Assembly: GCA_030647435.1 (NCBI GenBank)
Contig: JAUSJX010000008.1
Location: 1 to 64,000, forward strand
DNA length: 64,000 nt
From: Candidatus Rokuibacteriota bacterium
Lineage (GTDB): Bacteria; Methylomirabilota; Methylomirabilia; Rokubacteriales; CSP1-6
Direction: 5' to 3'
Shown: positions 36,789-51,717 of the stretch, in pieces
How positions within the stretch are numbered: the first letter of the stretch is position 1
How the letters are laid out: every line of letters begins with the position of its first letter
Notes under the pieces: model-generated
What the model saw: only the letters and a program-made list of their open reading frames with translations
Databases searched by the model: none
Told to the model about the DNA's origin: nothing
Position numbers and translations under genes: made by a program

Positions 36789-37870
36789 GCGCCGTCTACA
36801 TGCGCGGCGGCACCAGCCGCTGCCTGGTCTTCCACGAGCGCGATCTGCCGCCGGCCGGCGTCGAGCGCGACTACATTCTGCTGGCGGCGCTCGGCAGCCC
36901 CGATCCCTACGGCCGCCAGCTCGACGGACTGGGCGGCGGCATCTCGTCGCTCTCCAAGGCCTGCATCATCGGCCCGACCACCCACCCAGGCGCCGACGTG
37001 GACTACACCTTCGCGCAGGTCGAGGTGGGCAAGGCGCACGTGGACTACACGGGCAACTGCGGCAACTGCTCCTCCGCCGTCGGGCCCTTCGCCATCGAGG
37101 AGCGCCTGATCCAGCCCATCGAGGGCGAGACGCTCGTGCGCATCCACAACACCAACACCAAGAAGCTCATCGTGGCGCGCGTGCCCGTGGCGGGCAGCGA
37201 GCCCGCCGTCCACGGCGACTTCGAGCTCCCCGGCGTGGCGGGCACGGGCGCGCGCATCGCGCTGGACTTCCTCGAGCCCGGCGGCGCGGGCACAGGCCGG
37301 CTCCTGCCGACCGGCAAGACACGTGAGATGGTCGAGGGCGTCGAGGCTTCGCTCGTGGACGCCTCCATCCCCATGGTCTTCGTCCGCGCCCGCGATCTCG
37401 GGCTCACCGGCACCGAGACGCCGCAGGCTGTGGACGGCGACAAGGCGCTCTGCGCGCGCCTCGAAAAGATCCGTGTCGCCGCCTCGCACCTCATGGGCAT
37501 CCCGGGCAGCGCCGCCACGCCGAAGATCGCCATGGTCACGGCGCCTGTCGAGTACACGGCCCTCGACGGCTCGCGCGTCGGCCGCGAGCAGGCCGACGTC
37601 GTCGCTCGCGCCATCTCCATGGGCAACTGCCACCGCGCCTTCCCGCTCACCTCCTCCATGTGTCTCGCCGTAGCAGCGCGCATCGAGGGCACCCTGGTCC
37701 ACGAGTGCTCGACTGCCAAGCCCGGCGCCGACGTGCGCCTCGGCCACCCGTCGGGCGTGCTGCCCCTCGACGCCGTCGTCGCCAAGCAGGCCGGCGAGTA
37801 CCACGCCGAGCGCGTCACCGTCTACCGCACCGCGCGCCGCCTGATGGAAGGCTGGGTCCGCATCCCCTGA
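36770..37870 (+). CDS. prpF: PrpF-family isomerase (2-methylaconitate cis-trans isomerase-like)
   Basis: 366 residues. The opening VRAVYMRGGTSRCLVFHERD, LDGLGGGISSLSKACII and DYTGNCGNCSSAVGPFA are diagnostic of PrpF, a diaminopimelate-epimerase-fold enzyme; the paired cysteine and lysine regions used for proton transfer are present. It moves the double bond of 2-methylaconitate so that an ordinary aconitase can hydrate it. Related family members act on oxalomesaconate or itaconate-type acids. Citrate synthase and aconitase immediately upstream support the methylcitrate reading. Confidence 0.88.
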   Translation: MTQARVRAVYMRGGTSRCLVFHERDLPPAGVERDYILLAALGSPDPYGRQLDGLGGGISSLSKACIIGPTTHPGADVDYTFAQVEVGKAHVDYTGNCGNCSSAVGPFAIEERLIQPIEGETLVRIHNTNTKKLIVARVPVAGSEPAVHGDFELPGVAGTGARIALDFLEPGGAGTGRLLPTGKTREMVEGVEASLVDASIPMVFVRARDLGLTGTETPQAVDGDKALCARLEKIRVAASHLMGIPGSAATPKIAMVTAPVEYTALDGSRVGREQADVVARAISMGNCHRAFPLTSSMCLAVAARIEGTLVHECSTAKPGADVRLGHPSGVLPLDAVVAKQAGEYHAERVTVYRTARRLMEGWVRIP

Positions 37871-38850
37871 TGGACCGCCGCGCGTTCCTAGGCCTCGCGG
37901 CAACCGGCGTGGTCGCGGCGCCCGGTGTCGCCCGCGCTCAACAGGCGGGCAAGGCCCACCGCATCGGCTTCCTGTCCCTGGGATCCGGCCCGGCCGCCCC
38001 GGTTGAGGCCTTTCGCGAGGGGCTGCGCGAGCTGGGCTATGTCGAAGGGCGCAACCTCACCATCGAGTACCGATGGGCGGCAGGCAAGGCGGGGCGCCTG
38101 CCGGAGATGGCGGCAGAGCTCGTGCGGCTCAAGGTGGAGGTCATCGTCGGGGTTACGACGCCGGTCATCGAGGCAGCCAAGCGCGCGACCAGTACCATCC
38201 CCATCGTCATGGCGGCGGTGGCCGATCCCGTCGGCAGCGGCCTCGTCGCCGGCCTCGCCCGCCCGGGCGGCAATGTCACGGGCCTGACCCTGATGTCCAC
38301 CGAGCTCGTCGGCAAGCGGCTCCAGCTGGTGCGCGAGCTCCTCCCCAAGGCCACGCGGGTTGCGGTGCTCTCCTACCACGGTTATACCTCCGCCACGAGG
38401 CCCTACCTCGAGCAGATGCGGGCCGCGGCGCAGCAGATGGGGATCCAACTCGTCGTCCAAGAAGTGAACGAGGCTAGGGACCTGCCCGACGCCTTCACCG
38501 CCATGCAGCGCGAGCGGGCCCAGGCGCTCGACGTGCGGGCCAGCCCGTTCAGCACTGAAAACGCCAAGCGCATCGTGGAGCTGGCGGCGCAGCACCGCCT
38601 GCCCGCCATGTACGACGTTCGAAGCTTCGTGGAAGCGGGCGGGCTCGTCTCCTATGGGCCGAGCGGCCTCGAGATATTCCGCCGGGCCGCCTTCTACGTG
38701 GACAGGATCCTCAAGGGCGCCAAGCCCGCCGACCTGCCGATCGAGCAGCCCACGAAGTTCGAGCTGGTCATCAACCTGAGGGCGGCGAGGGCGCTCGGCC
38801 TGACCATCCCGCCGGCCCTGCTGGCGCGCGCGGACCAGGTGATCCAGTGA
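37870..38850 (+). CDS. ABC-type substrate-binding protein (PF04392), orphan copy 1
   Basis: 326 residues. A twin-arginine-like signal (MDRRAFLGLAATG, cleavage after ARA) precedes the family core: ELGYVEGRNLTIEYRWA, LVRLKVEVIV, TIPIVMAAVADPVGSGLV and LARPGGNVTG. The closing RILKGAKPADLPIEQPTKFE then ADQVIQ recurs in the next copies. The ATG shares one base with the prpF stop (TGATG). No permease or ATPase of this type is adjacent. Ligand unknown; relatives are often called sugar- or tryptophan-binding. Confidence 0.9.
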   Translation: MDRRAFLGLAATGVVAAPGVARAQQAGKAHRIGFLSLGSGPAAPVEAFREGLRELGYVEGRNLTIEYRWAAGKAGRLPEMAAELVRLKVEVIVGVTTPVIEAAKRATSTIPIVMAAVADPVGSGLVAGLARPGGNVTGLTLMSTELVGKRLQLVRELLPKATRVAVLSYHGYTSATRPYLEQMRAAAQQMGIQLVVQEVNEARDLPDAFTAMQRERAQALDVRASPFSTENAKRIVELAAQHRLPAMYDVRSFVEAGGLVSYGPSGLEIFRRAAFYVDRILKGAKPADLPIEQPTKFELVINLRAARALGLTIPPALLARADQVIQ

Positions 38851-39863
38851 TGGACCGGCGGGCATTCCTTGCTGGCACGGGTGCGGTGCTCCTTGCTGCG
38901 CCCCGCGCCGCCGAGGCGCAGAAGTCAGAGAAGAAGGCTCGCGTGGGAATTCTTGGCATCGGTCCAGCTCCGAGCCCACAGGAGCTGGCGAAGTCAGTCT
39001 CGACAAACCCGTTCTGGCTGTCGATGAGACAGCTCGGCTGGGTCGATGGCCAAAACATGGTCGTCGAGCGACGGTTCGGCGAATCAGCCGATCAGCTTCG
39101 CACAGGCGCCGCTGACCTCGTGCGCCTCAAGGTCGACGTACTGTTCGTTTCGGGCGCGGGCCTGGCAAAGATCCTTCAACTGGAAACGAAAACCATCCCC
39201 ATCGTGGTCGGTCGCGCCGACAATGATCTTGTTGCCGCAGGACTCGTCGACAGCCTCGCAAGGCCTGGGGGCAATATCACAGGGTCACAGCTCCTCAACG
39301 ATGATCTCATCCCAAAGCGTCTCGAGCTTCTCAAAGCGCTTGTACCGAATCTCTCAAAGGTCGCGCTCCTTCGAGAGGATGTCACAACCTCGGCACTCCC
39401 CCAGATACGCGCTCGGTTCGATGAACAGGTCGCGATCGCGGCTCGGAGCCTCGGCATAGAGGTTCATACGTTCATCGTGCGCCGAGCGGGGGACTTGGCT
39501 GCCGCTTTCCTCGGCATGAAGAAGAATCACGACCAGGGTGTAGTGGTGACGTCGCCAGCGTTTATGTTCGTGCATAGAAAGGCCATCGTCGATCTTGCGG
39601 CCGCGCATCGGATCGCCGCAGTCTATGACCTCCAGGTGTTTGTTGAGCCAGGTGGGCTCATGTCCTATGGAGTAAATGTTGCCGAGATGCAGCGACGTGC
39701 TGCGGTCTACGTGGACAAGATCCTCAAGGGGGCCAAGCCCGCCGACCTGCCTATCGAGCAGCCGACGAAGTTCGAACTGGTCATCAACCTCAAGACGGCG
39801 AAGGCGCTCGGCCTCACCGTCCCGCAGTCTCTGCTTTCGCGTGCCGATCAGGTGATCCAGTGA
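38850..39863 (+). CDS. ABC-type substrate-binding protein (PF04392), orphan copy 2
   Basis: 337 residues from the ATG in TGATGGACCGG, one base shared with the previous stop; an in-frame GTG at 38847 is less likely. Signal MDRRAFLAGTGAVLLAAPRA. The middle (for example ASRSLGIEVHTFIVRRAG-like stretch) is clearly diverged from copy 1, yet the end is almost identical, so the copies recombine or are conserved at the C-terminus. Tandem with copies 1 and 3. Confidence 0.9.
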   Translation: MDRRAFLAGTGAVLLAAPRAAEAQKSEKKARVGILGIGPAPSPQELAKSVSTNPFWLSMRQLGWVDGQNMVVERRFGESADQLRTGAADLVRLKVDVLFVSGAGLAKILQLETKTIPIVVGRADNDLVAAGLVDSLARPGGNITGSQLLNDDLIPKRLELLKALVPNLSKVALLREDVTTSALPQIRARFDEQVAIAARSLGIEVHTFIVRRAGDLAAAFLGMKKNHDQGVVVTSPAFMFVHRKAIVDLAAAHRIAAVYDLQVFVEPGGLMSYGVNVAEMQRRAAVYVDKILKGAKPADLPIEQPTKFELVINLKTAKALGLTVPQSLLSRADQVIQ

Positions 39864-40861
39864 TGGACCGCCGCGCGGTGCCCGGCTGTGCCGCCGCTGT
39901 TGTCGTCGCCGTCGTAGTCGCCTGCGGGTTCAGCTACGCGGCAGGGCAGTCGCGCGAATCCATGCCCCGCGTCGGCATGCTCACGCCGGCCCCGTCTGCG
40001 ACAGCGAAGCCGTTGTGGGATGCGTTCCGCGAGGCGATGAAGGAGCTCGGCTATGTCGAGGGGAAGAGCGTCGTCTACGAGTACCGGTCGGCGGAAGGAC
40101 AGCTCGATCGGCTCCCTCAACTGGCAGCCGAGCTGGTCAAGCTTCCGGTGAAGGTCATGGTGGTCGCGAACACTCCGGGCAACCTCGCGGCCAAGAATGC
40201 TACCGCGACCATACCCATCGTCATGGTGGGGGTCGGAGACCCCGTGCGGGTGGGGCTCGTCTCCAACCTGGGGAGGCCGGGCGGGAACATCACGGGGTTC
40301 ACCACCCTCACCGGCCCGCTCACCGCCAAGCGGCTCCAGCTCCTCAAGGAGCTGGTCCCGACCGCCACACGCATCGGGCTCATCGGCAACCCCGGCGTCC
40401 CCAACACGCTGATCCAGATCCAGGACGCCGAGGCCGCCGCCCGTGAGTTGAAGGTTCAGCTCCGCGTCTTCACGGTCGAGGAAGCGGCGCAGCTCGAGCC
40501 CGCCTTCGAGGCGGCGCGGGGCTGGCGAGCTCAGGCCCTGATGCGCCTGGCCGAGCCGCTCCAGGCTTCCCTTCGGGCGCGGACGATCGAGCTTGCCGCC
40601 AAGACCCGGATCCCTGTGATGTACACGTCCCGGGCCGACGTGGAGGCGGGCGGGCTCATAGGGTATGGGGTCGAGCCCGTCGACACCTACAAGCGTGCCG
40701 CCGCCTACGTGGACAGGATCCTCAAGGGCGCTAAGCCCGGCGAGCTCCCCGTTCAGCAGCCCACGAAGCTGGAGCTTGGCGTCAACCTGAAGACCGCCGC
40801 GGCCCTGAACATCAAGATCCCTCAAGCCATTCTCGCGCGGGCCGACCAGGTGATCCAGTGA
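39863..40861 (+). CDS. ABC-type substrate-binding protein (PF04392), orphan copy 3
   Basis: 332 residues from the ATG at 39863 (again TGATGGACC). The signal segment (AAVVVAVVVACGFSYAAG) contains a Cys that could make it a lipoprotein, unlike the other copies. Core motifs ELGYVEGKSVVYEYRSAEG, TIPIVMVGVGDPV and RPGGNITGF are present, with the ending RILKGAKPGELPVQQPTKLE then ADQVIQ. Stop overlaps the start of the acyl-CoA synthetase (GTGA). Confidence 0.9.
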   Translation: MDRRAVPGCAAAVVVAVVVACGFSYAAGQSRESMPRVGMLTPAPSATAKPLWDAFREAMKELGYVEGKSVVYEYRSAEGQLDRLPQLAAELVKLPVKVMVVANTPGNLAAKNATATIPIVMVGVGDPVRVGLVSNLGRPGGNITGFTTLTGPLTAKRLQLLKELVPTATRIGLIGNPGVPNTLIQIQDAEAAARELKVQLRVFTVEEAAQLEPAFEAARGWRAQALMRLAEPLQASLRARTIELAAKTRIPVMYTSRADVEAGGLIGYGVEPVDTYKRAAAYVDRILKGAKPGELPVQQPTKLELGVNLKTAAALNIKIPQAILARADQVIQ

Positions 40862-42501
40862 CGGCGCGGAACATGACCGACTACGCGGCGACGATGCGGG
40901 ACTTCCGCCTGGAAGTGCCCGCGCGCTTCAACTGGGCCTTCGACACCTTCGATGCGTGGGCGCGGGATCCCTCGAAGCTCGCGCTGCTCTGGGTGTCGGC
41001 CGACGGGCAGCCGCGGCGATTCACTTTCGCAGAGCTCGCCGAGCGCTCGAAGCGCTTCGCCAATGCGCTCGCGGGCCTCGGCGTCAAGCCTGGCGAGCGG
41101 GTCGTCGTCATGCTCCCGCGCGTCTATCAGTGGTGGGAGATCCTGCTGGGCTGCCTGCGCGCGCGCACCGTGTCCGTTCCCGGCACCACGCTCCTCACCA
41201 CCAAGGACATCACCTATCGCCTCCAGGCCGCCGAGGCGAGCGTGGTCATCACCGACGAGGACAACACGCACAAGGTGGACCAGGTCCTGCTCGAGTGCCC
41301 GACGGTGAAGCACCGGATCGTGCTGGGGCGTGCAGGCGGAGGCTGGCAGGAGTACGAGCGACTGATGGGCCTCGCCTCGTCCGAAATGGCGCACCCGAGA
41401 AACGCGAGCGGCGACCCGATGATGGTCTACTTCACCTCGGGGACGACCGGCTTCCCGAAGATGGTGCTGCATACCCACGCGTCTTACCCCATCGGCCACA
41501 TCATCACGGGCAAGTTCTGGCTCGACAACACGCCAGAGGACCTGCACTGGACGATCTCGGACACGGGCTGGGCCCAGGCCGCGTGGACTTCCTTCTTCGC
41601 GCCCTGGAACATGGGCGCGGCCATCTTCGTCTGGGACGCGCGCGGCAAGAAGTTCGACTCGCAGGAGACGCTCGCCATGTTCGAGCGCTTCCCCATCACG
41701 ACCTTCTTCGCGCCGCCGACGGCCTATCGCATGATGGTCCAGGAGCCGCTCCGCAAGTACCGTTACCCGACGCTGCGCCACTGCATGGGCGCGGGCGAGG
41801 CCGTCAACCCCGAGGTGATCGAGGCCTGGCGCGAGGGCACGGGGCATCACATCTACGAGGGCTACGGTCAGACCGAGAGTGTGCTGGTGGCCGCGACCTT
41901 CCCGGCCACGCCGTGGAAGCCCGGCTCCATGGGCCCGGCCGCGCCGGGGCACCATCTCGCCATCGTGGGCGAAGAAGGGCGCGAGCTGCCGCGCGGCGGG
42001 GAGGGCGACCTCGCCATCCGCGTGAAGCCGGAGCGGCCCGTGGGCATGTTCCAGGAGTACTGGAAGAACGCGGAGGCCACCGCGAAATGCCACCGCGGCG
42101 ACTGGTACATCACCGGCGACCGCGCGTCCATGGATGAGGAGGGCTATCTCTGGTTCGTCGGCCGCGCCGACGACGTGATCAACAGCGCGTCCTACCGCAT
42201 CGGGCCGTTCGAGGTGGAGTCGGCCCTGGTGGAGCACGCCGCCGTCGCCGAAGCCGCCGTCATCGGCAAGCCGGACGCGCTCCGCGGCGAGATCGTCAAG
42301 GCCTTCGTGGTTCTCGCCCCCGGTCACACCGCCTCCGACGCCCTCGCCACCGAGCTCCAGGAGCACGTCAAGACGGTGACCGCGCCCTACAAGTACCCGC
42401 GCGAGATCGAGTTCGTCGCCGACCTGCCCAAGACCATCAGCGGCAAGATCCGCCGCACCGAGCTCCGCCAGATGGAGCGCGACCGGAGCAAGCCGCGATG
42501 A
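40858..42501 (+). CDS. AMP-forming acyl-CoA synthetase, ACSM/benzoate-CoA-ligase-like
   Basis: 547 residues from GTG 40858. ATP-binding YFTSGTTGFPKMVLHTH, adenylate region YEGYGQTES, the hinge WYITGDRASMDEEGYLWFVG and the catalytic lysine in KTISGKIRRTE are all in order. Activates a carboxylic acid, probably medium-chain or aromatic, to its CoA thioester. Placed between two PF04392 binding proteins with 4-base overlaps on both sides, suggesting that the bound ligand is an acid activated here. Confidence 0.92.
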   Translation: MTARNMTDYAATMRDFRLEVPARFNWAFDTFDAWARDPSKLALLWVSADGQPRRFTFAELAERSKRFANALAGLGVKPGERVVVMLPRVYQWWEILLGCLRARTVSVPGTTLLTTKDITYRLQAAEASVVITDEDNTHKVDQVLLECPTVKHRIVLGRAGGGWQEYERLMGLASSEMAHPRNASGDPMMVYFTSGTTGFPKMVLHTHASYPIGHIITGKFWLDNTPEDLHWTISDTGWAQAAWTSFFAPWNMGAAIFVWDARGKKFDSQETLAMFERFPITTFFAPPTAYRMMVQEPLRKYRYPTLRHCMGAGEAVNPEVIEAWREGTGHHIYEGYGQTESVLVAATFPATPWKPGSMGPAAPGHHLAIVGEEGRELPRGGEGDLAIRVKPERPVGMFQEYWKNAEATAKCHRGDWYITGDRASMDEEGYLWFVGRADDVINSASYRIGPFEVESALVEHAAVAEAAVIGKPDALRGEIVKAFVVLAPGHTASDALATELQEHVKTVTAPYKYPREIEFVADLPKTISGKIRRTELRQMERDRSKPR

Positions 42502-42549
42502 CGCTCGCCCAGACTCCCTCTCCCTCGCTCTGGGAGAGGGCCGCGGTGA
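42492..42549. repeat. Palindromic element inside the start of a substrate-binding protein gene
   Basis: CCCTCTCCCTCGCTCTGGGAG then AGGGCC, a short member of the repeat family, lies between GCCGCGATGA (42492-42501) and GCCGCGGTGA (42540-42549), a direct repeat with one mismatch that duplicates the start-codon context. Confidence 0.6.
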
Positions 42550-43529
42550 GGGTGCCGAGACTGCTCCTACTCGCCCTCATCTTCCTCGCGGCACCCCTCG
42601 GCGCCGAGGCGCAGCAGGCGGGGAAGGTGTGGCGGATCGGCTACCTTCAGACGTCGCCGCGGGAGGCCCAGCTCCACCTGATTCAAGCCTTCGAGGGTGG
42701 CCTCCGCGAGAGGGGTTACACGCCCGGGCGCGACATCGTGATCGAGTACCGCTTCGCAGATGGACGCGTCGAGCGGCTCCCCGAGCTGGCGGCCGACCTG
42801 GTCCGGCTCAAGGTGGACGTGATCGTCACCGGAGTCAACCCCAATACTATCGCTGCCAAGAAGGCGACGACCACGATCCCCATCGTGATGGCCGGCTCGT
42901 ACAATCCGGTGGAAGATGGGCTTGTGGCGAGCCTGGCCCATCCTGGCGGGAACGTCACCGGCCTGACGCTGAATGCCGGCGCAGAGATCCAGACCAAGCG
43001 CCTGCAGCTTCTCAGAGAAATCAACCCCGAGCTCTCCCGCGTCGCCACCTTGTCGGGTATCGGCATGTCATACAACCCGTCTCAGGTGAGAGTCCTCGAG
43101 GATACGGGTCGCGGCTTGGGGATCACGATCCTGCCGGTCGAGTTCCGGGGGGCCGGCGATGTCGGAGATGCCTTCGCCAAAATCGGCCGTGCGCGGGTAG
43201 GTGGGCTCATCGTTTTTGGCGGCCCCCTCGTCCTCGAGCAGATGGCCAGAATCGCCAGCCTGGCGGTGAAGAGCCGACTCCCAGCCATCTTCAATGGCCG
43301 ACAATACGCCCGCGATGGGGGCCTCATGTCGTACGGTGCGGACATTGCTGATCAGTGGCGGCGTGCCGCAGGGTACGTTGACCGCATCCTGAAGGGCGCC
43401 AAGCCCGCCGACCTGCCCGTCGAGCAGCCCACCAAGTTCGAGTTGGTCATCAACCTCAAGACCGCGAAGGCGCTCGGGCTCACGATCCCGCAGTCGCTGC
43501 TGCTGCGCGCCGACGAGGTGATCCAATGA
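42498..43529 (+). CDS. ABC-type substrate-binding protein (PF04392), orphan copy 4
   Basis: 343 residues from ATG 42498 (ATGA overlap with the previous stop). The first 16 residues (MTLAQTPSPSLWERAA) are repeat-derived; the in-frame GTG at 42546 begins a normal signal peptide (VRVPRLLLLALIFLAAPLGA). Either start may be used. Core: ERGYTPGRDIVIEYRFADG, LVRLKVDVIVTG, HPGGNVTGLTL; end RILKGAKPADLPVEQPTKFE then ADEVIQ. Confidence 0.9.
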   Translation: MTLAQTPSPSLWERAAVRVPRLLLLALIFLAAPLGAEAQQAGKVWRIGYLQTSPREAQLHLIQAFEGGLRERGYTPGRDIVIEYRFADGRVERLPELAADLVRLKVDVIVTGVNPNTIAAKKATTTIPIVMAGSYNPVEDGLVASLAHPGGNVTGLTLNAGAEIQTKRLQLLREINPELSRVATLSGIGMSYNPSQVRVLEDTGRGLGITILPVEFRGAGDVGDAFAKIGRARVGGLIVFGGPLVLEQMARIASLAVKSRLPAIFNGRQYARDGGLMSYGADIADQWRRAAGYVDRILKGAKPADLPVEQPTKFELVINLKTAKALGLTIPQSLLLRADEVIQ

Positions 43530-43535
43530 GGCGCC

Positions 43536-43575
43536 CCCCTCACCCTGCCCTCTCCCCAGAGGGGAGAGGGATGCG
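43536..43575. repeat. Palindromic repeat-family copy
   Basis: CCCCTCACCCTGCCCTCTCC followed by CAGAGGGGAGAGGG: one full arm and part of the complementary arm, in the 73-bp gap before the acyl-CoA dehydrogenase. Confidence 0.75.
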
Positions 43576-43602: not shown

Positions 43603-44745
43603 ATGTTCACCGAAGAACACGGGATGCTGCGGAAGAGCGTGCGGGCCTTCGTGGAGAAGGAGGTCGCGCCGCACGTGGACGAGTGGGAGGAGGCGGGGCA
43701 GATCCCCAAGTCATTCTGGCGGCGGCTGGGGGAGCTGGGGTTCCTTGGGTTGGAGTTCCCGGTGGAGTACGGCGGGGCGGGCGGCGATTTCCTGTCGAGC
43801 GTGGTGCTGGGCGAGGAGATGGCGCGCTGCCGCTCGGGCGGCGTGGCCTTCAGCGTGCTGGTGCACACGGACATGTCCTCGCCCTGGCTCACACGCTACG
43901 GGACGGAAGAGCAGAAGCGGAAGTATCTCCCTGGCATCATCAATGGGGACACCGTGTGCGCGCTGGGCATCACCGAGCCTGGCACGGGCTCTGACATGGC
44001 AGCGCTCGCCACGCGTGCGGTGCGCAAGGGCGACCACTACCTCCTCACAGGCAGCAAGATCTTCATCACCAACGGCGTCTACGGCGACCTCTACTTCGTT
44101 GCGGCGCGGACGGCGCAGGGCACGCCCGAGCGGCGCCACGACGGCATCTCCATGTTCCTCGTCGAGCGCGGGCTGCCAGGCTTCACGGTCAGCCGCAAGC
44201 TCGACAAGATGGGCATGCGCGCCTCGGACACCGCAGAGCTGGCCTTCCACGAGTGCCCGGTGCCGGCGGAGAACCTGCTGGGCGTCGAGGGGCGCGGCTT
44301 CCAGCAGCTGGCGGCGGGGCTCCAGCGCGAGCGCATCATGGCTGCGGTGCTGGCCCTCTCCGGCGCTGCGCAGGCGCTGGAGGACACGATGGTCTATCTC
44401 CGAGAGCGCCAGGCTTTCGGCGAGCCGTTGAGCCGAAAGCAGGCGCTCCGGCACAAGGTGGCCGAGATGGGGACGGACATCGAAGCGGCGCGGCATCTGG
44501 TCTATCGCGCCGTGGCGTGCTACAAGGCGGGCGAGGACTGCATAACCGAAGTCTCCATGGCCAAGCTCTTCGCGACGGAGGTGGCCAACCGCGTGGCCTA
44601 CCAGGCCGTCCAGATGCACGGCGGCTACGGCTACATGCGCGAGTTCCCGGTGGAACGGTTCTTCCGCGACGTGCGGCTCTGGACGATCGCGTCGGGAACC
44701 TCCGAAATCATGAAAGAGATCATCGCCAAGAGGCTGCTGACGTGA
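43603..44745 (+). CDS. Acyl-CoA dehydrogenase
   Basis: 380 residues, standard length. FAD/substrate segments GITEPGTGSDMAAL and FITNGVYGDLYFVAAR, the QAFGEPLSRKQALRHKVAEM helix, and C-terminal QMHGGYGYMREFPVERFFRD then ASGTSEIMKEIIAKR are present; the catalytic Glu is expected in the GTSE region or the preceding loop depending on subclass. Oxidises an acyl-CoA to its 2-enoyl-CoA, passing electrons to ETF. Twelve bases before the first MetE-like gene. Confidence 0.92.
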   Translation: MFTEEHGMLRKSVRAFVEKEVAPHVDEWEEAGQIPKSFWRRLGELGFLGLEFPVEYGGAGGDFLSSVVLGEEMARCRSGGVAFSVLVHTDMSSPWLTRYGTEEQKRKYLPGIINGDTVCALGITEPGTGSDMAALATRAVRKGDHYLLTGSKIFITNGVYGDLYFVAARTAQGTPERRHDGISMFLVERGLPGFTVSRKLDKMGMRASDTAELAFHECPVPAENLLGVEGRGFQQLAAGLQRERIMAAVLALSGAAQALEDTMVYLRERQAFGEPLSRKQALRHKVAEMGTDIEAARHLVYRAVACYKAGEDCITEVSMAKLFATEVANRVAYQAVQMHGGYGYMREFPVERFFRDVRLWTIASGTSEIMKEIIAKRLLT

Positions 44746-44757
44746 GGAGAACCTGAC

Positions 44758-45792
44758 ATGACCGCGAAGCTCCCGCTGCTGTACACCCACGTGATGGGCA
44801 GCCACGGCTTCCCCGGCTGGTTCTGGACCGCGCTCGACAAGATCAAGGCGGAGGAGTACGGGCAGACCGACGTCAGGGAGACCTTCGACGACGCGACACA
44901 GCTCGCGATCCGCGACCAGGAGCGGGCAGGGATCGACGTGATCTGCGACGGCGAGATGCGCCGCTTCTTCTTCGTCCAGAGCTTCTACGGCAAGATGGAA
45001 GGGCTGGAGGTCCTGGAGCCGCTGCGGAAGACCGGGCTCTACGCCTACGACAGCGTGCCGCGCTACCGGCCGACGCGGAAGATCACGGTACCCAAGGGCC
45101 TCGGCACGGTGGACGAGTTCAAGTACCTCAAGTCGCAGACCGACAAGCCGGTCAAGGCGACGTGCCCAGGACCCGTGACGCTGTCCATCCACGTCCAGAC
45201 GCGGCCGGGCGACGCGTACAACAACGACCGCCTGGCGCTCTGCTGGGACCTGGTGCCGGCGGTCAACGCGGAGTTGAAGGCGCTCGCCGCGGCCGGCGCC
45301 GACTGGATCCAGGTGGATGAGCCCTCGGCCGCCATCGTGCCCGGCCAGGCGCCCGAGTACGTGAAGATGTTCAACGCCTGCGTGGAGGGCGTGAAGGCGA
45401 AGATCGGCTACCACGTCTGCTTCGGCAATCTCCTCTCGCGCCCGCGCGGCAAGCGGAGCTACCGCTGGATGTTCCCGGCGCTGCTCGAAACCAAGTGTCA
45501 GCAGTTCGTCTTCGAGTACGCCAACCGCGAGATGGCCGAGATCGAGATGTGGAAGGAGATCGGCGTGGACCGGGACATCGCCTGCGGAGTGGTTGACGTG
45601 AAGTCCTTTTACATGGAGACTCCGGAGGATATCGCGGAGCGGGTCCGCCTCTGCCTCAAGTACATCCCCGCCGAGCGGCTGTCGCTGATTCCCGACTGCG
45701 GGTTCTTCCCCGTGCCGCGGTGGGTGGCGTTCGAGAAGCTCAAGCGGCTGGCGGCCGGGGCCCAGTTGGCGCGCAAGGAACTGAAGGGCTAA
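44758..45792 (+). CDS. MetE C-terminal-like (cobalamin-independent methionine synthase family) methyltransferase, paralogue 1
   Basis: 344 residues, only the catalytic (beta/alpha)8 half of MetE. Zinc ligands appear as H and C in YHVCFGN, a Glu in FEYANRE and a Cys in IPDCGFF. Stand-alone proteins of this size transfer methyl or alkyl groups between a carrier and a thiol; they lack the N-terminal folate-binding half of true MetE. A GAGGAG site precedes the ATG. Paired with a diverged paralogue at 50689, the two bracketing a complete Liv-type transporter. Confidence 0.85.
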   Translation: MTAKLPLLYTHVMGSHGFPGWFWTALDKIKAEEYGQTDVRETFDDATQLAIRDQERAGIDVICDGEMRRFFFVQSFYGKMEGLEVLEPLRKTGLYAYDSVPRYRPTRKITVPKGLGTVDEFKYLKSQTDKPVKATCPGPVTLSIHVQTRPGDAYNNDRLALCWDLVPAVNAELKALAAAGADWIQVDEPSAAIVPGQAPEYVKMFNACVEGVKAKIGYHVCFGNLLSRPRGKRSYRWMFPALLETKCQQFVFEYANREMAEIEMWKEIGVDRDIACGVVDVKSFYMETPEDIAERVRLCLKYIPAERLSLIPDCGFFPVPRWVAFEKLKRLAAGAQLARKELKG

Positions 45793-45816
45793 CTCTCAAT
45801 GACGAGGGGGGGCATC

Positions 45817-47097
45817 ATGGCGACAACGAGGCGCGAATTCCTCAAAGTGGCAGGCGGCGCGGCGGCCGCGGGCGCGGTCGGCTTCCCGGCGGTGGCGCGG
45901 GGTCAGGCGCGGCCCGGGGTGCCGTCCGACCCGGTCAAGATCGGCATCATCGCGATCCGCGCGGGCATCGCGGCGCCCGTCGGTACCGCCGGCCTGCGCG
46001 GGACGGAGTGGTGGGCCGAGCGCGTCAACAAGTCCGGCGGCATCCTCGGCCGCCAGGTCCAGCTGATCGTGGAGGAGGAATCCAACCCCAAGGACACCGT
46101 CGAGCGCTACCGCAAGCTCATCCTCCAGGACAAGGTCGAGGTGGTCATCGGCGGCATCTCCACGGGCGTGACGCTGGCTCTCGGGCCCGTCGCCGAGGAG
46201 ATGGACACGCCGTGGCTCTCCTGGGACGGCACGACCCAGAAGGGCGTCGAGGAAACGATGCCGAATCCCAAGTGGGCCTTCAAGAGCGTGGACAACGAGG
46301 TCGAGGCCATCGTGGCCGGCACCCTCACGCCCAAGTACTTCAAGGGCGTCCAGACCATCGCCGGCATCAACAACGACTACTCCTACGGCCACGACTGCTG
46401 GGAGACCTACCAGGCCGTGCTCAAGAAGATGGGCATGAACGTCAAGCCGGTGCTGGAGCTGTTCCCGAAGCTCGGCGTGACGGACTTCACCTCACACATC
46501 GCCGCGATCCAACAGGCCAAGCCGGATCTGCTCATGACGTCGTTCTGGTCGGGCGACGCGACGATCCTCATGAAGCAGGCGGCGGCGGTCGGGCTCTTCA
46601 AGAACATGAAAGGCGTCTTCACCACGGCGGGCGGCGTCCACGACTCGCTCAAGAAAGAGTTCACGCCCGAGGGGCTCTTGCTGGGCTACAACACCATGTA
46701 CTTCGACGACCCGAAGGGCTCGCCGCTGCTGAAGCAGTTCGTCCGCGAGTACAAGGCCAAGTACAACGAATACCCGGCCTACGAGTCCGACCACGCCTAC
46801 TTCAACATCGAGTCGTACAAGGTCGCGGTCGAGAAGGCCTATGCGCAGACCAAGCAGTGGCCGACCAAGGCGCAGGTGGTCAAGGCGCTCGAGGGCGTTG
46901 AGGCCGAGTCGCTCTCGGGCACGCGTTCGTGGCGGCCGGACCACATTCAGATGTGCAACTTCTACCAGGGCTTGACGACCCACAAGAACAACTACGACTT
47001 CGTCACGATCAACCCCATCGAGGTCGTCTCCACCAAGACCGCGATGAAGCCCGCGGGCTCCAAGCTCCTCGACTGGATCAACGGCTGGAAGGTCTAA
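45817..47097 (+). CDS. Branched-chain-amino-acid-type ABC transporter substrate-binding protein (LivK-like)
   Basis: 426 residues from ATG 45817, which has GAGGGGGG just before it and begins directly at a twin-arginine signal (TTRREFLKVAGG, cleavage near ARG); an ATG at 45799 lacks a ribosome site. The Peripla_BP_6 core is evident: VKIGIIAIRAGIAAPVGTAG, then VIGGISTGVTLALGPVAEE and AGINNDYSYGHDCWETYQAV. Ligands in this family range from amino acids to amides, urea and aromatic acids, so the substrate is open. Confidence 0.9.
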   Translation: MATTRREFLKVAGGAAAAGAVGFPAVARGQARPGVPSDPVKIGIIAIRAGIAAPVGTAGLRGTEWWAERVNKSGGILGRQVQLIVEEESNPKDTVERYRKLILQDKVEVVIGGISTGVTLALGPVAEEMDTPWLSWDGTTQKGVEETMPNPKWAFKSVDNEVEAIVAGTLTPKYFKGVQTIAGINNDYSYGHDCWETYQAVLKKMGMNVKPVLELFPKLGVTDFTSHIAAIQQAKPDLLMTSFWSGDATILMKQAAAVGLFKNMKGVFTTAGGVHDSLKKEFTPEGLLLGYNTMYFDDPKGSPLLKQFVREYKAKYNEYPAYESDHAYFNIESYKVAVEKAYAQTKQWPTKAQVVKALEGVEAESLSGTRSWRPDHIQMCNFYQGLTTHKNNYDFVTINPIEVVSTKTAMKPAGSKLLDWINGWKV

Positions 47098-47101
47098 TCT
47101 C

Positions 47102-47190
47102 CCACCCCCTCACCCTACCCTCTCCCCCTCGCGGGGGAGAGGGTGCCCGGTTCTCTCCCTCTCCCCTCTGGGGAGAGGGCCGGGGTGCGG
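47102..47190. repeat. Two adjacent palindromic repeat-family copies
   Basis: CCCTCACCCTACCCTCTCCC with its complementary arm GGGGGAGAGGGTG, then CTCTCCCTCTCCCCTCTGGG with GGAGAGGGCCGGGGTG. They lie in the 115-bp gap between the binding-protein and first permease genes. Confidence 0.8.
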
Positions 47191-47212
47191 GGAAGCCCCC
47201 TTCCCCCAGTCC

Positions 47213-48100
47213 ATGACCGCGAACCTCGTGAACATCCTGATGGGCGGTGTGTTCCACGCCGCCATCCTCTTCCTGGTCGCCGCGGGGTTGCAGGTGGTCT
47301 TCGGCGTGCAGAAGATCTTCAACCTGGCGTGCGGCTCCTTCTACGCGCTGGGCGCGTACACCGGCGTCTCGGCCGTCGGGTACTTCACCGCGCATGGCGG
47401 GCCGCCGGCGCTCTTCATCATTCCGCTGGCGCTTGGCGGACTGGCGGTCGGCCTGGTGGGCGTCGTCGTCGAGCGCGGACTGCTTCGCTTCGTCTACGAC
47501 CGCGACGAGACCTTCCAGCTCCTGCTCACCTTCGCGCTGGTGCTGATGCTGGAAGACCTGATTCGCATGACCTGGGGCACGGCACCTGTCTCGACCGGCG
47601 GGCTCTACCTCAACTACGGCCAGGCGCGGATCCTGGGCGCGACCGTGCCTGTCTACAACCTGATCGTCATCGCCGCGAGCCTCGCCATCGCGCTCGGCAT
47701 CGGGTGGCTGCTCTCACGCACGGTTTTCGGGCGCATCATCCGCGCCGCCGCCGACAACCGCGAGATGGCCGAGGCGCTCGGCGTGGACATGCGATGGGTG
47801 TACGTGCGCGTCTTCACGCTGGGGACCATGCTGGGGACGCTGGGCGGCGCGCTCGTGATCCCGGCGACGGCGGCCATGAGCGAGATGGGCATCGAGCTGA
47901 TCGTCGAGGCCTTCGCTGTCGTCGTGATCGGGGGGTTGGGCAGCATGCGCGGGGCTTTCGTCGGAGCCCTGGTTGTCGGCGTGCTCCGATCGGTCGCCAT
48001 CTCCGTCTATCCCGAGCTCGAGATGCTGCTGATCTATCTCATCGTGATCGCAGTGCTCATCTGGCGACCGCGCGGGCTCTTCGGGACGGCTGCCGCGTGA
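47213..48100 (+). CDS. LivH-type ABC transporter permease
   Basis: 295 residues, eight or more hydrophobic segments. HAAILFLVAAGLQVVFGVQK then FNLACGSFYALGAY is the typical LivH N-terminus; the cytoplasmic loop ADNREMAEALGVDMRWVYVR contacts the ATPases. First membrane subunit of the importer; its stop overlaps the next gene (GTGA). Confidence 0.92.
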   Translation: MTANLVNILMGGVFHAAILFLVAAGLQVVFGVQKIFNLACGSFYALGAYTGVSAVGYFTAHGGPPALFIIPLALGGLAVGLVGVVVERGLLRFVYDRDETFQLLLTFALVLMLEDLIRMTWGTAPVSTGGLYLNYGQARILGATVPVYNLIVIAASLAIALGIGWLLSRTVFGRIIRAAADNREMAEALGVDMRWVYVRVFTLGTMLGTLGGALVIPATAAMSEMGIELIVEAFAVVVIGGLGSMRGAFVGALVVGVLRSVAISVYPELEMLLIYLIVIAVLIWRPRGLFGTAAA

Positions 48101-49056
48101 GAACGCCCGTCGTCCTGTCGCTCGTGGGGATCGCCTTCCTCGGGCTTCCCGTCCTGGCGCCGACTTACTACGTCACGCTGATGCTGCCCTTCATGGCCTA
48201 CGGCGTGGTCCTGCTCGGGCTGAACCTCCTCTTCGGCTACACGGGCCTCGTCTCCTTCGGCCACGCGCTCTTCATCGGCATCGGCGCCTACACCGGCGCG
48301 GTGCTGACAACTCATCTCGGCGTGCGCCACATGGAGCTGATCCTCCCGGCCGCCGCGCTCGCCGCCGCCGTCGTGGCGGCGCCCGTCGGCGCGCTCTGCG
48401 TCCGCTATGTCAAGATCTACTTCGGCATGCTGACGCTGGCCTTCGGCATGGTCTTCTATACTTTCTTGCTCAAGTTCTACAGGCTGACGGGCGGCGACGA
48501 GGGCATGCGCATGCTCCGCCCCTATCTCCTCGGCAGCGAGTGGTCGGGGTTCTCCAAGACGGCGTACCTGATCGGGCCGTACTACTACTTCTCTCTCGCG
48601 GTGCTCGTGCTCGCCACGCTCCTCATGTGGCGCATCGTCCGCTCGCCGTTCGGCCTGTGCCTGAAGACCATCCGCGACAACCCGCTCAAGGCCGAGAGCC
48701 TCGGCGTCAGCGTGCCGCGCTACCGCTGGTACGCCTTCATGATCTCGGCCGTCTACGCGGGCGTGGGCGGGGCGCTCCTGGCCACGCCGACGGGCAACGT
48801 GGACCCGACGCTCGCCTACTGGACGCACTCGGGCAATATCGTCTTCATGGTCCTGCTCGGCGGCTTCTCGTCCTTCTTCGGCCCGCTCCTGGGCGCCTTC
48901 GCCTTCATCTTCCTCCAGGACACCGTCATGTCGGTCTTCCCCTACTGGCGGCTCATCTTCGGCGCCGTGCTGGCCTTCATCGTGATCTTCGCCCCGGGTG
49001 GGCTCATGGGTCTCTTCGCGAGACGTCGCCGGCCGGTCGAGGTCTCTCGCGCGTGA
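48097..49056 (+). CDS. LivM-type ABC transporter permease
   Basis: 319 residues from GTG 48097, overlapping the LivH stop; a much longer upstream frame is only read-through of the LivH region. GLNLLFGYTGLVSFGHALF is the family signature, followed by TIRDNPLKAESLGVSVPRYR, the ATPase-coupling loop, and GGFSSFFGPLLGAFAF. Stop overlaps the LivG start (GTGA). Confidence 0.92.
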   Translation: MRTPVVLSLVGIAFLGLPVLAPTYYVTLMLPFMAYGVVLLGLNLLFGYTGLVSFGHALFIGIGAYTGAVLTTHLGVRHMELILPAAALAAAVVAAPVGALCVRYVKIYFGMLTLAFGMVFYTFLLKFYRLTGGDEGMRMLRPYLLGSEWSGFSKTAYLIGPYYYFSLAVLVLATLLMWRIVRSPFGLCLKTIRDNPLKAESLGVSVPRYRWYAFMISAVYAGVGGALLATPTGNVDPTLAYWTHSGNIVFMVLLGGFSSFFGPLLGAFAFIFLQDTVMSVFPYWRLIFGAVLAFIVIFAPGGLMGLFARRRRPVEVSRA

Positions 49057-49958
49057 TCCTCGAGGCGCTGGATATCCGCAAGCTCTACGGCCCCTATGTG
49101 GCGCTCGACGGCGTGAGCCTGTCGATCCGCGAGGGCGAGTTCGTCTCTATCATCGGCCCGAACGGCGCCGGCAAGTCCACGCTCATCAACGTGCTGACGG
49201 GCGTCCTCCAGCCGAGCGCGGGCAGCGTGCGCTTCAAGGGCAAGGACATCGGCGGCATCGGGACAGTCGCGCTCACGCGGCTCGGCATGGCGCGGAGCTT
49301 CCAGCTGGTCCAGATTTTCCCCGAGCTGACGGTCCTCGAGACGCTCCAGGCCGCCGTCGTCTCGCGCCTCGGGCGCGGCGCCAGGCTCTTCGCCTCGCTC
49401 GCGGGCGACAGCCAGGTCCAGGCCGACGCGCTCGAGGTCGCCGCGCTCTTCAATCTCTCCGACAAGGCCCACGCCCTCGCGCGCGAGCTGCCCCAGGGCG
49501 ACAAGAAGCTCCTCGACGTCGCCTCGGCTTTCGCGCTGCGGCCCGAGATCATCCTGCTGGACGAGCCGACGAGCGGCGTCAGCACGGCGGACAAGCACGC
49601 CATCATGGAGATCCTGGTGGGCGCGGCCAAGCGGATCGGGCTCCGCGCCATCATCCAGGTCGAGCACGACATGGACATCGTCTTCGGCTACTCGGACCGC
49701 ATCATCGCGCTCCACCAGGGCAAGGTGCTCGCCGACGCGACGCCATCGCAAATCGAAGCCGACGCCAAGGTCGTAGACATGGTCGTCGGCAGGAGACGCT
49801 CCCCTCACCCTCCCCTCTCCCCAGAGGGGAGAGGGAATTCGGAACCCTCGCCTCCATTGGGGGAGAGGGAACCAGGTTCGGACCCCTCTCCCCCAAATGG
49901 GGGGGAGGGCCGCCGTTCGAGCCGAGACGCTCGCCTCGAGCGGGGAGGCGAGGGCTGA
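49053..49958 (+). CDS. LivG-type ABC ATPase with a repeat-encoded C-terminal extension
   Basis: 301 residues from GTG 49053. Walker A GPNGAGKST, LivG-type MARSFQLVQIFPELTVLE, Walker B IILLDEPTSGV and VEHDMDIVFGYSDRI are in place, with the signature loop replaced by ELPQGDKKLLDVASAFAL rather than a classic LSGGQ. The normal protein ends around residue 249 (VVDMVVGRR). The last about 50 residues (SPHPPLSPEGRGNSEPS and onward) are a translation of the palindromic repeat cluster and have no family counterpart. Confidence 0.88.
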   Translation: MILEALDIRKLYGPYVALDGVSLSIREGEFVSIIGPNGAGKSTLINVLTGVLQPSAGSVRFKGKDIGGIGTVALTRLGMARSFQLVQIFPELTVLETLQAAVVSRLGRGARLFASLAGDSQVQADALEVAALFNLSDKAHALARELPQGDKKLLDVASAFALRPEIILLDEPTSGVSTADKHAIMEILVGAAKRIGLRAIIQVEHDMDIVFGYSDRIIALHQGKVLADATPSQIEADAKVVDMVVGRRRSPHPPLSPEGRGNSEPSPPLGEREPGSDPSPPNGGEGRRSSRDARLERGGEG

Positions 49959-49976
49959 GATGGTGAGGGGGTAGGG
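49799..49976. repeat. Palindromic repeat cluster read through as the LivG C-terminus
   Basis: CCCCTCACCCTCCCCTCTCC then CCAGAGGGGAGAGGG, further CTCTCCCCC/GGGGGAGAGGG arms, and at 49915-49970 a second module (GTTCGAGCCGAGACGC ... GGCGAGGGCTGAGATGG). That module is shared with 61445-61494. Confidence 0.85.
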
Positions 49977-49981
49977 CGCGT

Positions 49982-50689
49982 ATGCTCATCGTCCAAGACA
50001 TCGACGTGTTCATCCAGGCGAGCCACATCCTGCGGCGCGTGTCGCTGGAGGTGCGGGAGCGCGAGGTGGTCTGCCTCGTGGGGCGGAACGGCGCGGGCAA
50101 GACGACGACGCTCCGGACCATCATGGGCTACCATCGCCCCCGGGGCGGCGGCATCCGCTTCAACGACGTGCCGCTCCACGAGCGGCGCACTCACGAGATC
50201 GCGCGGCTGGGGCTGGGGTTCGCCCCGGAGGAGAGCGGCATCTTTCCCGATCTGACGGTGGCGGAGAACATCGAGATCTCGACGTGGACGCGCCCCGGCG
50301 GGCGACCCGCGGCGGAGCGGCTGGCCGCGGCTTACGAGATCTTCCCCGCGTTGAAGAAGTACATGACGCGGAAAGGCCCGGAGATGTCGGGTGGCGAGAG
50401 GAAGATGCTATCCATCGCGCGGGCGCTGGCGCTCGATCCGGACATGCTGCTGCTCGACGAGCCCTTCGAAGGGCTCTCGCCCGCCATCGTCCCCACGGTC
50501 GCCGCCGGCCTGGCCGAGATCACCCAGCGCGGCCACGCCATCCTGATCGCCGAATCGAACATCTACCACGTGCCGGACTTCGCCACGCGGCTCTACGTCA
50601 TCGAGCGCGGCGAGATCATCTTCGCGGGCCGGCCGGACGACGTCCGGAGGGACGCCGCCGCCCTCCGCGCAATAGGAGGACACGCCTGA
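49982..50689 (+). CDS. LivF-type ABC ATPase
   Basis: 235 residues. Walker A GRNGAGKTTTLRTIMG, signature MSGGERKMLSIARAL, Walker B MLLLDEPFEGLSP and the LivF-type IAESNIYHVPDFATRLYVIE are present. Second ATPase of the importer. Its stop shares a base with the start of the second MetE-like gene (TGATG), tying transporter and enzyme together. Confidence 0.93.
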   Translation: MLIVQDIDVFIQASHILRRVSLEVREREVVCLVGRNGAGKTTTLRTIMGYHRPRGGGIRFNDVPLHERRTHEIARLGLGFAPEESGIFPDLTVAENIEISTWTRPGGRPAAERLAAAYEIFPALKKYMTRKGPEMSGGERKMLSIARALALDPDMLLLDEPFEGLSPAIVPTVAAGLAEITQRGHAILIAESNIYHVPDFATRLYVIERGEIIFAGRPDDVRRDAAALRAIGGHA

Positions 50690-51717
50690 TGGCCGCTCTC
50701 CCCCTCATCCCCTCCGCCGTCGTCGGCTCTCACGGCAAGCCCGGGTGGTGGTTCGCCACTGTCAAGAAAGTCGAGGCCGGCGACTACGGTCCCGGCGACC
50801 TGGACGAGATGTTCGACGACGCCGCCGACACCGCCATCCGCGACATGGAGAGGGCCGGCCTCGACATCATCACGGACGGAGAAGTCCGCCGCCTTGACGG
50901 CTACGTGGATTCCTACTACACGATCATGAAGGGCATCTCGCCCCTGCCCGTGCGCCGCAAGGCCGGACCCTGGGGCTACGACCAGCAGACGCGCTACGAG
51001 GCCGTCGGGCGCATCGAGACGCCAGAGGGCGGGCTCGGCATCGTCAAGGAGTTCGAGTATCTGAAGGCGCACACGTCGAAGGCGACCAAGGCGACCTGTG
51101 CGGGGCCGCTGACCTTCGGCTCGCGAATTCATCCAGGCAAGATGTACAAGGGCGTGGTGGACGTGGCGGAGCGCTTCGCGGAAATGATCAACGTGGAGCT
51201 GAAGGCTTTGGTGGCGGCGGGCGCGGACTTCATCCAGCTGGACGAGCCCGCGCGCGGGAACGTCTCGGGCGAGGAAATGGCGCGCCTCTTCAACATGGCG
51301 ACCGAGGGCGTGAAAGCCAAGCTCGGCTTCCACATCTGCTTCGGCAACCGCTTCGGCCGCTCGCGCTTCGACCGGACGTATCGACCGTACTTCCCGGGCA
51401 TCCTCAAGGCGCGCGCCGACCAGCTCGTCCTGGAGTTCGCCGGGCGCGAGTTCTCCGAGCTCGACCTCTGGAAGGAGTACGGCCAGGACCGCGAGCTGGG
51501 CGCCGGCGTCATCGACGTCAAGGGCTTCTACCCTGAGACGCCGGAGGACGTCGCCAAGCGCATCAAGCGCGTGCTCGCCGTCTGCAAGCCGGAGAAGCTC
51601 TACGTCAACCCCGACTGCGGCTTCGGCTGGTCACCCCGCTACATGTGCAACCAGAAGGTCCGCGCGCTGGCGGCGGGCGCCGTCCTGGCCCGCCAGGAGC
51701 TCCAGGGGAAGAAGTAG
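50689..51717 (+). CDS. MetE C-terminal-like methyltransferase, paralogue 2
   Basis: 342 residues. Same fold and zinc pattern as the gene at 44758: H and C in FHICFGN, Glu in LEFAGRE, Cys in NPDCGFG. Substrate-facing loops differ (YVDSYYTIMKGISPLPVRRK here against RFFFVQSFYGKMEGLEVLEP there), so the two probably act on different methyl or alkyl donors. Translationally coupled to LivF. Confidence 0.85.
   Translation: MAALPLIPSAVVGSHGKPGWWFATVKKVEAGDYGPGDLDEMFDDAADTAIRDMERAGLDIITDGEVRRLDGYVDSYYTIMKGISPLPVRRKAGPWGYDQQTRYEAVGRIETPEGGLGIVKEFEYLKAHTSKATKATCAGPLTFGSRIHPGKMYKGVVDVAERFAEMINVELKALVAAGADFIQLDEPARGNVSGEEMARLFNMATEGVKAKLGFHICFGNRFGRSRFDRTYRPYFPGILKARADQLVLEFAGREFSELDLWKEYGQDRELGAGVIDVKGFYPETPEDVAKRIKRVLAVCKPEKLYVNPDCGFGWSPRYMCNQKVRALAAGAVLARQELQGKK

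What the first reader, a model, noticed from the sequence alone, without database searches (positions are those of the whole stretch)
44758..51717. Liv-type importer bracketed by two diverged MetE-C-like methyltransferases
Both enzymes keep the zinc-thiolate site but differ in their substrate loops; the second is coupled to LivF by TGATG. With an acyl-CoA dehydrogenase at the left edge, the locus may import and demethylate a methylated sulfur or nitrogen compound, feeding one carbon and an acyl chain to metabolism. I know of no described pathway with this layout.
Basis: inference. Interest (0 to 1): 0.62.

Follow-up and report, generated by a model that had tools for sequence, protein, structure and literature searches.

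The report
Importer operon with two MetE-like enzymes
Bacteria of the uncultured Rokubacteria group carry a conserved operon that joins an ABC importer to two methionine-synthase-like enzymes lacking the folate-binding half, so they may strip methyl groups from an imported, still unknown compound.

Summary
In a Rokubacteria genome, a complete Liv-type importer (LivKHMGF) is bracketed by two diverged single-domain MetE-C enzymes; M2 overlaps livF by TGATG. Both keep all four zinc ligands and all three homocysteine-contacting residues, invariant in 16 M1 and 29 M2 orthologues. The M2 model matches MesD best (3RPD, Z 39). By context they fall outside MesA-D: MesX was found in 0 of 60 genomes, the Wood-Ljungdahl corrinoid protein is absent from the own genome, and a full-length MetH is present. 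The methyl donor is open.

The linkage is real. M2 occurs in 31 of 39 order-level genomes: in 20 directly after livF, in 4 more after a short insertion. M1 sits next to the importer in 12 of 17. Two other MetE-C subfamilies end two other Liv cassettes. But in 5 genomes the importer is lost or decayed while M2 stays intact, and outside Rokubacteria the pairing is rare.

Best reading (inferred, 0.42): folate-independent homocysteine methyltransferases that demethylate a small methylated acid fed by the importer, with acyl-CoA enzymes downstream. Substrate unknown. New variant of a known kind.

The parts
40858..42501 (+). AMPL: AMP-forming acyl-CoA ligase; kept beside ACAD and M1 in several relatives
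   Evidence: AMP-binding 236 bits; 80% or more identical orthologues beside ACAD and M1 in G007, G008, and in G003 and G029 nearby
42498..43529 (+). PF04392-type substrate-binding protein; position not conserved, probably not part of the unit
   Evidence: ABC_sub_bind 145 bits; not at this place in most relatives
43603..44745 (+). ACAD: short-chain-type acyl-CoA dehydrogenase
   Evidence: Acyl-CoA_dh domains; orthologues 75-91% in 8 relatives' loci
44758..45792 (+). M1: single-domain MetE-C-like enzyme, zinc site H219/C221/E253/C314, homocysteine contacts S15/E66/D187
   Evidence: Meth_synt_2 112 bits; residues invariant in 16 of 16 orthologues
45799..47097 (+). LivK-type binding protein
   Evidence: Peripla_BP_6 198 bits; orthologues in 29 of 60 genomes; model
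47213..48100 (+). LivH-type permease
   Evidence: BPD_transp_2 125 bits
48097..49056 (+). LivM-type permease
   Evidence: BPD_transp_2 132 bits
49053..49958 (+). LivG-type ATPase, C-terminus lengthened by repeat DNA
   Evidence: ABC_tran 100 bits; comparison of C-termini
49982..50689 (+). LivF-type ATPase
   Evidence: ABC_tran 108 bits
50687..50691 (+). TGATG overlap of livF stop and M2 start
   Evidence: sequence; gap of -1 or -4 in most relatives' loci
50689..51717 (+). M2: single-domain MetE-C-like enzyme, zinc site H215/C217/E249/C310, homocysteine contacts S14/E65/D185
   Evidence: Meth_synt_2 77 bits; residues invariant in 29 of 29 orthologues; model nearest 3RPD

Best explanation
M1 and M2 are folate-independent, zinc-thiolate homocysteine S-methyltransferases of the MetE catalytic-domain type. 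The Liv-type importer feeds them, or the pathway they sit in, with a small methylated acid. The enzymes move its methyl group to homocysteine (giving methionine), and the demethylated acid is activated and oxidised by the acyl-CoA enzymes encoded beside them. Shown: gene content, conserved linkage, translational overlap, intact zinc and homocysteine-contacting residues, MetE-C fold of the model. Inferred: that methyl transfer is the reaction, that homocysteine is the acceptor, and that the donor is the imported compound. Donor identity is open; a methoxylated aromatic acid or an onium compound are both possible.
For: All seven zinc or homocysteine-contacting residues are invariant in 16 of 16 M1, 29 of 29 M2 and 12 of 12 other paralogues examined, mapped on MesD 3RPD and MetE as listed in PMC7857596 section 11. 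livF-M2 gap is -1 or -4 in most loci. M2 directly follows livF in 20 of 31 genomes, plus 4 with an insertion. M4 (ATGA overlap with livG in L082, L083, L084) and M6 (just after livF in L106) end two other, unrelated Liv cassettes. A Roseomonas plasmid also has Liv genes upstream of a MetE-C gene. Known methyl-donor partners are missing: MesX 0 of 60 (positive control 2 of 2), no MTTB and no CoFeSP hit in the own genome. MetH is present in the own genome, and M2 does not track MetH absence (20 of 24 order-level genomes with MetH, 11 of 15 without). Acyl-CoA genes recur around M1 and M2.
Against: In 5 of 31 genomes M2 is kept while the importer is absent (G014, G018, G025) or decayed (G010, G027), so M2 does not depend on it. 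G038 keeps both, apart. M1 lies away from the importer in G007, G008, G012 and G029, and about 7 kb from it in G015. Outside Rokubacteria most MetE-C relatives have no Liv genes near. No corrinoid partner or riboswitch was found. The wider superfamily includes, from memory, an enzyme with other chemistry (epoxyalkane:CoM transferase).
Confidence: 0.42

Rival explanations
1. Sulfur amino acid supply unit. M1 and M2 are extra methionine synthases with an unknown donor, and the importer takes up methionine or another amino acid; cell either imports or makes methionine, from one operon.
For: Homocysteine-contacting residues conserved. M2 is present in 11 of 15 order-level genomes without a MetH hit. 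M2 is kept when the importer is lost, as expected of a biosynthetic enzyme. Some close folds of LivK bind amino acids.
Against: The own genome has a full-length MetH, and M2 is equally common with MetH (20 of 24). Several MetE-C paralogues per genome. No SAM-type riboswitch. It does not explain the acyl-CoA genes.
Confidence: 0.22
2. Non-methyl chemistry. M1 and M2 use the zinc-activated thiol of homocysteine or a similar thiol to add to, or eliminate from, an enoyl-CoA or epoxide made by the neighbouring acyl-CoA enzymes, like epoxyalkane:coenzyme M transferase (recalled as a MetE relative).
For: Zinc-thiol site intact; repeated placement beside acyl-CoA dehydrogenases, ligases, hydratases; no methyl-donor partner found.
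Against: [quoted passage not shown] best fold match is MesD. No membership test against epoxyalkane:CoM transferase was run.
Confidence: 0.14
3. Mere co-transcription. MetE-C paralogues are many and Liv cassettes are many in these genomes, and the pairing is an inherited neighbourhood without a shared substrate.
For: 55 LivF-like genes in the genome; M2 retained after importer loss in 5 of 31; M3 and M5 never beside Liv genes (0 of 13, 0 of 5); few Liv pairings among 80 named loci from other groups.
Against: Overlapping stop/start kept across many genera, three subfamilies end three unrelated Liv cassettes, roughly 8e-5 by chance under an assumed 1% base rate, plus Roseomonas.
Confidence: 0.12

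Closest known systems
MesD, core methionine synthase (PDB 3RPD; PMC7857596)
   Same: Single MetE catalytic domain, zinc ligands H/C/E/C, homocysteine contacts S/E/D; best fold match of M2 (Z 39.1, 28% identity)
   Different: MesX/DUF1852, which MesD requires, was found in none of 60 genomes; identity far below the ~55% that the authors used for MesD
MesB / core-MetE of Dehalococcoides (PMC7857596, PMC7005905)
   Same: Lacks the folate-binding half
   Different: MesB goes with the Wood-Ljungdahl CoFeSP; the own genome has no hit to that family
C-terminal domain of MetE
   Same: Fold (most MetE chains Z 28-35) and all seven site residues
   Different: No N-terminal folate-binding half
MtgBCDE, glycine betaine demethylation joined to methionine synthesis (PMC12478193)
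   Same: Idea only: catabolic demethylation shares parts with methionine synthesis
   Different: Built on MTTB, corrinoid and MetH-type modules; no MTTB in the own genome
Liv/HAAT ABC importers
   Same: Complete K-H-M-G-F set
   Different: Carries a MetE-C gene as its last, overlapping gene, and another before livK

Membership tests
MetE catalytic-domain superfamily (PF01717) | Match above the curated cut-off | tested here: met
   112 and 77 bits against 21
MetE catalytic-domain superfamily (PF01717) | Zinc ligands His, Cys, Glu, Cys | tested here: met
   Invariant in 16 M1, 29 M2 and 12 other paralogues
MetE catalytic-domain superfamily (PF01717) | Homocysteine-contacting Ser, Glu, Asp | tested here: met
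   S15/E66/D187 in M1, S14/E65/D185 in M2, aligned to 3RPD Ser22/Glu73/Asp188
Canonical MetE | N-terminal folate-binding half | tested here: not met
   344 and 342 aa, one catalytic domain only
MesD | Partner MesX (PF08908) | tested here: not met
   0 of 60 genomes; the search works on 2 of 2 positive-control plasmids
MesB | Wood-Ljungdahl CoFeSP in the genome | tested here: not met
   PF03599 has no match in the own genome; the two weak hits within the order lie in or beside MetH frames
MesA / MesC | Found in methanogens (MesA) or Wood-Ljungdahl archaea (MesC) | tested here: not met
Methionine synthase (function) | Converts homocysteine to methionine | not testable with these tools
   Needs an assay
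Epoxyalkane:coenzyme M transferase | Sequence and site of that family | not tested
   Considered from memory only
Liv/HAAT importer | Binding protein, two permeases, two ATPases | tested here: met
Liv/HAAT importer | Ligand is a branched-chain amino acid | tested here: inconclusive
   Fold neighbours of the LivK model bind aromatic acids, urea, amides and amino acids

The most novel reading that the evidence does not exclude
A fifth kind of folate-independent methyl transfer: MetE-C enzymes, without MesX, CoFeSP or MTTB, that take the methyl group straight from a compound brought in by a dedicated Liv-type importer. It would have been recruited at least three times in Rokubacteria onto unrelated Liv cassettes (M2, M4, M6) and once more in Roseomonas.
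Probability: 0.28. Interest if true: 0.72.

Novelty: new variant of a known kind. Interest (0 to 1): 0.5.

Why it matters
Core-MetE homologues occur in several marine bacteria, and whether they function in aerobic ones is called questionable (PMC12478193, passage of its discussion). A conserved operon that ties such enzymes to one importer gives a direct handle: the ligand of one binding protein could name the donor. If the donor is a methoxylated aromatic or an onium compound, it would open a demethylation route without folate, MesX or MTTB in an uncultured bacterial group.

Tried and rejected
Split MetE (M1 as one half, M2 as the other): rejected, since both keep the zinc site and both score as catalytic domains.

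Riboswitch clue: no Rfam match in the window or in 8 related loci, 137,775 bases.

MetH replacement: no complementarity between M2 and MetH.

Ligand by fold: the best chains for the LivK model are 3i45 (no ligand named in its title), then aromatic-acid, amino-acid and urea binders with close Z values, so no ligand is named.

Neighbours of distant relatives: ring-cleavage dioxygenases, CoA-transferase and amidohydrolases lie beside some alphaproteobacterial MetE-C genes (about 33-36% identity), and sugar-type genes beside some in Chloroflexi. The former hint at methoxyaromatics, but this is not transferable to the window.

Papers: seven searches on the enzymes or the host and two on epoxyalkane:CoM transferase and O-demethylation listed nothing whose title or abstract start describes this layout. 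The library lacks most subscription journals. Of PMC7857596 I saw the outline with abstract, passages, and sections 10 and 11; of PMC12478193 the abstract, outline and passages; of PMC7005905 the search listing only.

The 1% base rate is a rough estimate (55 LivF-like genes over some 5,600 genes, the gene number assumed from genome size), and the nine subfamilies are my grouping of the tree. Fisher test of M2 against LivK over 39 genomes: 26 both, 5 M2 only, 3 LivK only, 5 neither, p 0.016; the genomes are related, so this p is optimistic. The presence sets and the locus-to-genome table were entered by hand.

Errors of mine: LivM and LivG were given in wrong frames and returned nothing; repeated correctly (Pfam only). 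Alignment A1 held a two-base filler and a wrong coordinate; it was dropped and replaced by A3. In one search LivM and LivG of L090 merged into one predicted ORF, a caller artefact. In one search one M1 fragment of 101 aa (L052_9) was left out of the tree. L075 and L123 are the same contig and were counted once. One search's own controls rang nowhere, so one search was added as the positive control.

Full report
What is there. The window lies in a 5.79 Mb genome of 176 contigs. Several contigs of its relatives have the same lengths as named Candidatus Rokubacteria/Rokuibacteriota records: G017:C99 and MNEF01000098.1 (142,932), G030:C56 and QHTB01000072.1 (15,847), G013:C132 and MGBT01000132.1 (6,792), G025:C73 and JACPCG010000202.1 (3,583). 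The host is thus taken to be a Rokubacterium. The block runs AMPL, a PF04392 binding protein, ACAD, M1, LivK, LivH, LivM, LivG, LivF, M2, all on the + strand. livF and M2 overlap as TGATG.

The enzymes. M1 and M2 are 48% identical and form two clades with full support, sisters at 93/88. Mapped on MesD 3RPD (Ser22, Glu73, Asp188) and on MetE (His641, Cys643, Glu665, Cys726) as listed in PMC7857596 section 11, all seven residues are kept and invariant in 16 M1, 29 M2 and 12 other paralogues examined. M1 and M2 differ from each other at 61 clade-fixed positions. The M2 model (pLDDT 90.9) is nearest to 3RPD (Z 39.1, 323 residues, 2.5 A rmsd), then MetE C-terminal domains (most at Z 28-35), then uroporphyrinogen decarboxylases (about 22). 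This fits homocysteine as acceptor; it does not show it.

Which core MetE? MesX was found in none of 60 genomes; the same search finds it in 2 of 2 control plasmids. CoFeSP (PF03599) has no match in the own genome; 6 of 40 searched genomes have weak matches, two of them in this order, in or beside MetH frames. MTTB is absent from the own genome. A full-length MetH (1148 aa with S-methyl_trans, Pterin_bind, B12-binding and activation domains) is present. So the known donor partners of MesB and MesD are missing, and the cell has another methionine synthase. M2 is about as common in order-level genomes with MetH (20 of 24) as without (11 of 15).

Conservation. I searched 60 genomes, own included; 39 (G000-G038) are of the same order. 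M2 is in 31 of 60, all within the order. LivK orthologues are in 29 of 60. Of the 31 M2 genomes, 20 have M2 directly after livF; 4 have about 1-3 kb inserted (G006, G013, G021, G033); in G008 both sides end at contig ends; in G010 and G027 the importer is a remnant with M2 whole (in G027 LivK residues 7-137 run into LivF; in G010 part of LivF and a scrap of LivG remain); in G014, G018 and G025 no LivK orthologue is found, and in the latter two the gene that elsewhere precedes livK stands directly beside M2; in G038 importer and M2 lie apart. M1 is in 17 genomes (in G029 only a 100-residue stretch at a contig end). It is beside the importer in 11, beside the remnant in G027, about 7 kb away in G015, and apart in G007, G008, G012 and G029, in three of which it stays near AMPL and ACAD.

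Recurrence. Two other MetE-C subfamilies end other Liv cassettes: M4 with an ATGA overlap to livG (L082, L083, L084; also L070 with a gap), 4 of 18 members; M6 after livF in L106 and L107, 2 of 2. The cassettes are no closer to each other than unrelated ones (LivF 36-46%, against 45% for the best other LivF in the own genome). M3 (0 of 13; in the loci examined with Pfam beside mreB, mreC, mreD and rodA) and M5 (0 of 5) have no Liv genes adjacent. With 55 LivF-like genes in the genome, three of nine subfamilies by chance is about 8e-5 at a rough 1% base rate. A Roseomonas plasmid has Liv genes, an oxidoreductase, an NTF2-like gene and then a MetE-C gene. Among 80 named loci from many phyla, most have no Liv genes near; an exception outside Rokubacteria is L143, where Liv genes face an M2-like gene (53%) tail to tail.

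Metabolic context. AMPL-ACAD-M1 is kept in G007 and G008 without the importer. In G006 citrate synthase, aconitase and PrpF, the set of a methylcitrate cycle, stand upstream of ACAD, M1 and the importer. In about a dozen loci CoA-transferase III, enoyl-CoA hydratase and a second ACAD, in some also an HMG-CoA-lyase-like gene, lie near and mostly downstream of M2. A triad of a SAM-methyltransferase-like protein, M5 and an MTHFR/DUF5981 protein adjoins ACAD in G031 and M1-LivK in G013. This points to acyl-CoA breakdown tied to one-carbon transfer; it does not name the substrate.

The ligand. The LivK model (pLDDT 83) is nearest to 3i45 (Z 42.4), then to binders of vanillate, p-hydroxybenzoate, amino acids and urea (Z about 37-39.5). 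No ligand can be named.

Verdict. Linkage and site residues are solid. The import-then-demethylate reading is the best of several, at 0.42. Survival of M2 after loss of the importer in five genomes says that the enzyme's substrate can also come from inside the cell or by another transporter. The nearest rival is a plain extra methionine synthase coupled to amino-acid uptake (0.22).

Noticed in passing
window 43528-43571, 47098-47200, 49793-49836, 49884-49909 and elsewhere: G+C-rich palindromic repeat (CCCTCTCCCC...GGGGAGAGGG) scattered through the window; two copies lie in the 3' end of livG, which is about 50 codons longer than most orthologues.
   Followed up: partly
L110:7837-11758, L046:76-4094, L126, L111:2220-6232; also L179, L180, L195: Conserved triad: SAM-methyltransferase-like protein (about 480 aa, no Pfam family above cut-off), MetE-C gene M5, and MTHFR with DUF5981; also in Acidobacteria. 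Looks like a separate one-carbon unit.
   Followed up: partly
L049:9665-13725 (G027) and L075:6800-8157 (G010): Importer deleted or decayed to fragments while M1 and M2 (G027) or M2 (G010) stay intact.
   Followed up: yes
L191, L194, L196, L201, L203, L111: Pairs of strongly diverged MetE-C genes side by side, or one gene apart, in several phyla.
   Followed up: no
L131 (Roseomonas plasmid) and L134 (Aminobacter plasmid): MetE-C genes with ring-cleavage dioxygenase genes and a Liv or TRAP importer nearby, a possible aromatic O-demethylation setting.
   Followed up: partly
window about 37000-43529: Several PF04392-type binding-protein genes upstream of the block; labelled by similarity to the one tested with Pfam.
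   Followed up: no
L041:569-4852 (G006): Citrate synthase, aconitase and PrpF (methylcitrate-cycle type) directly upstream of ACAD, M1 and the importer.
   Followed up: no
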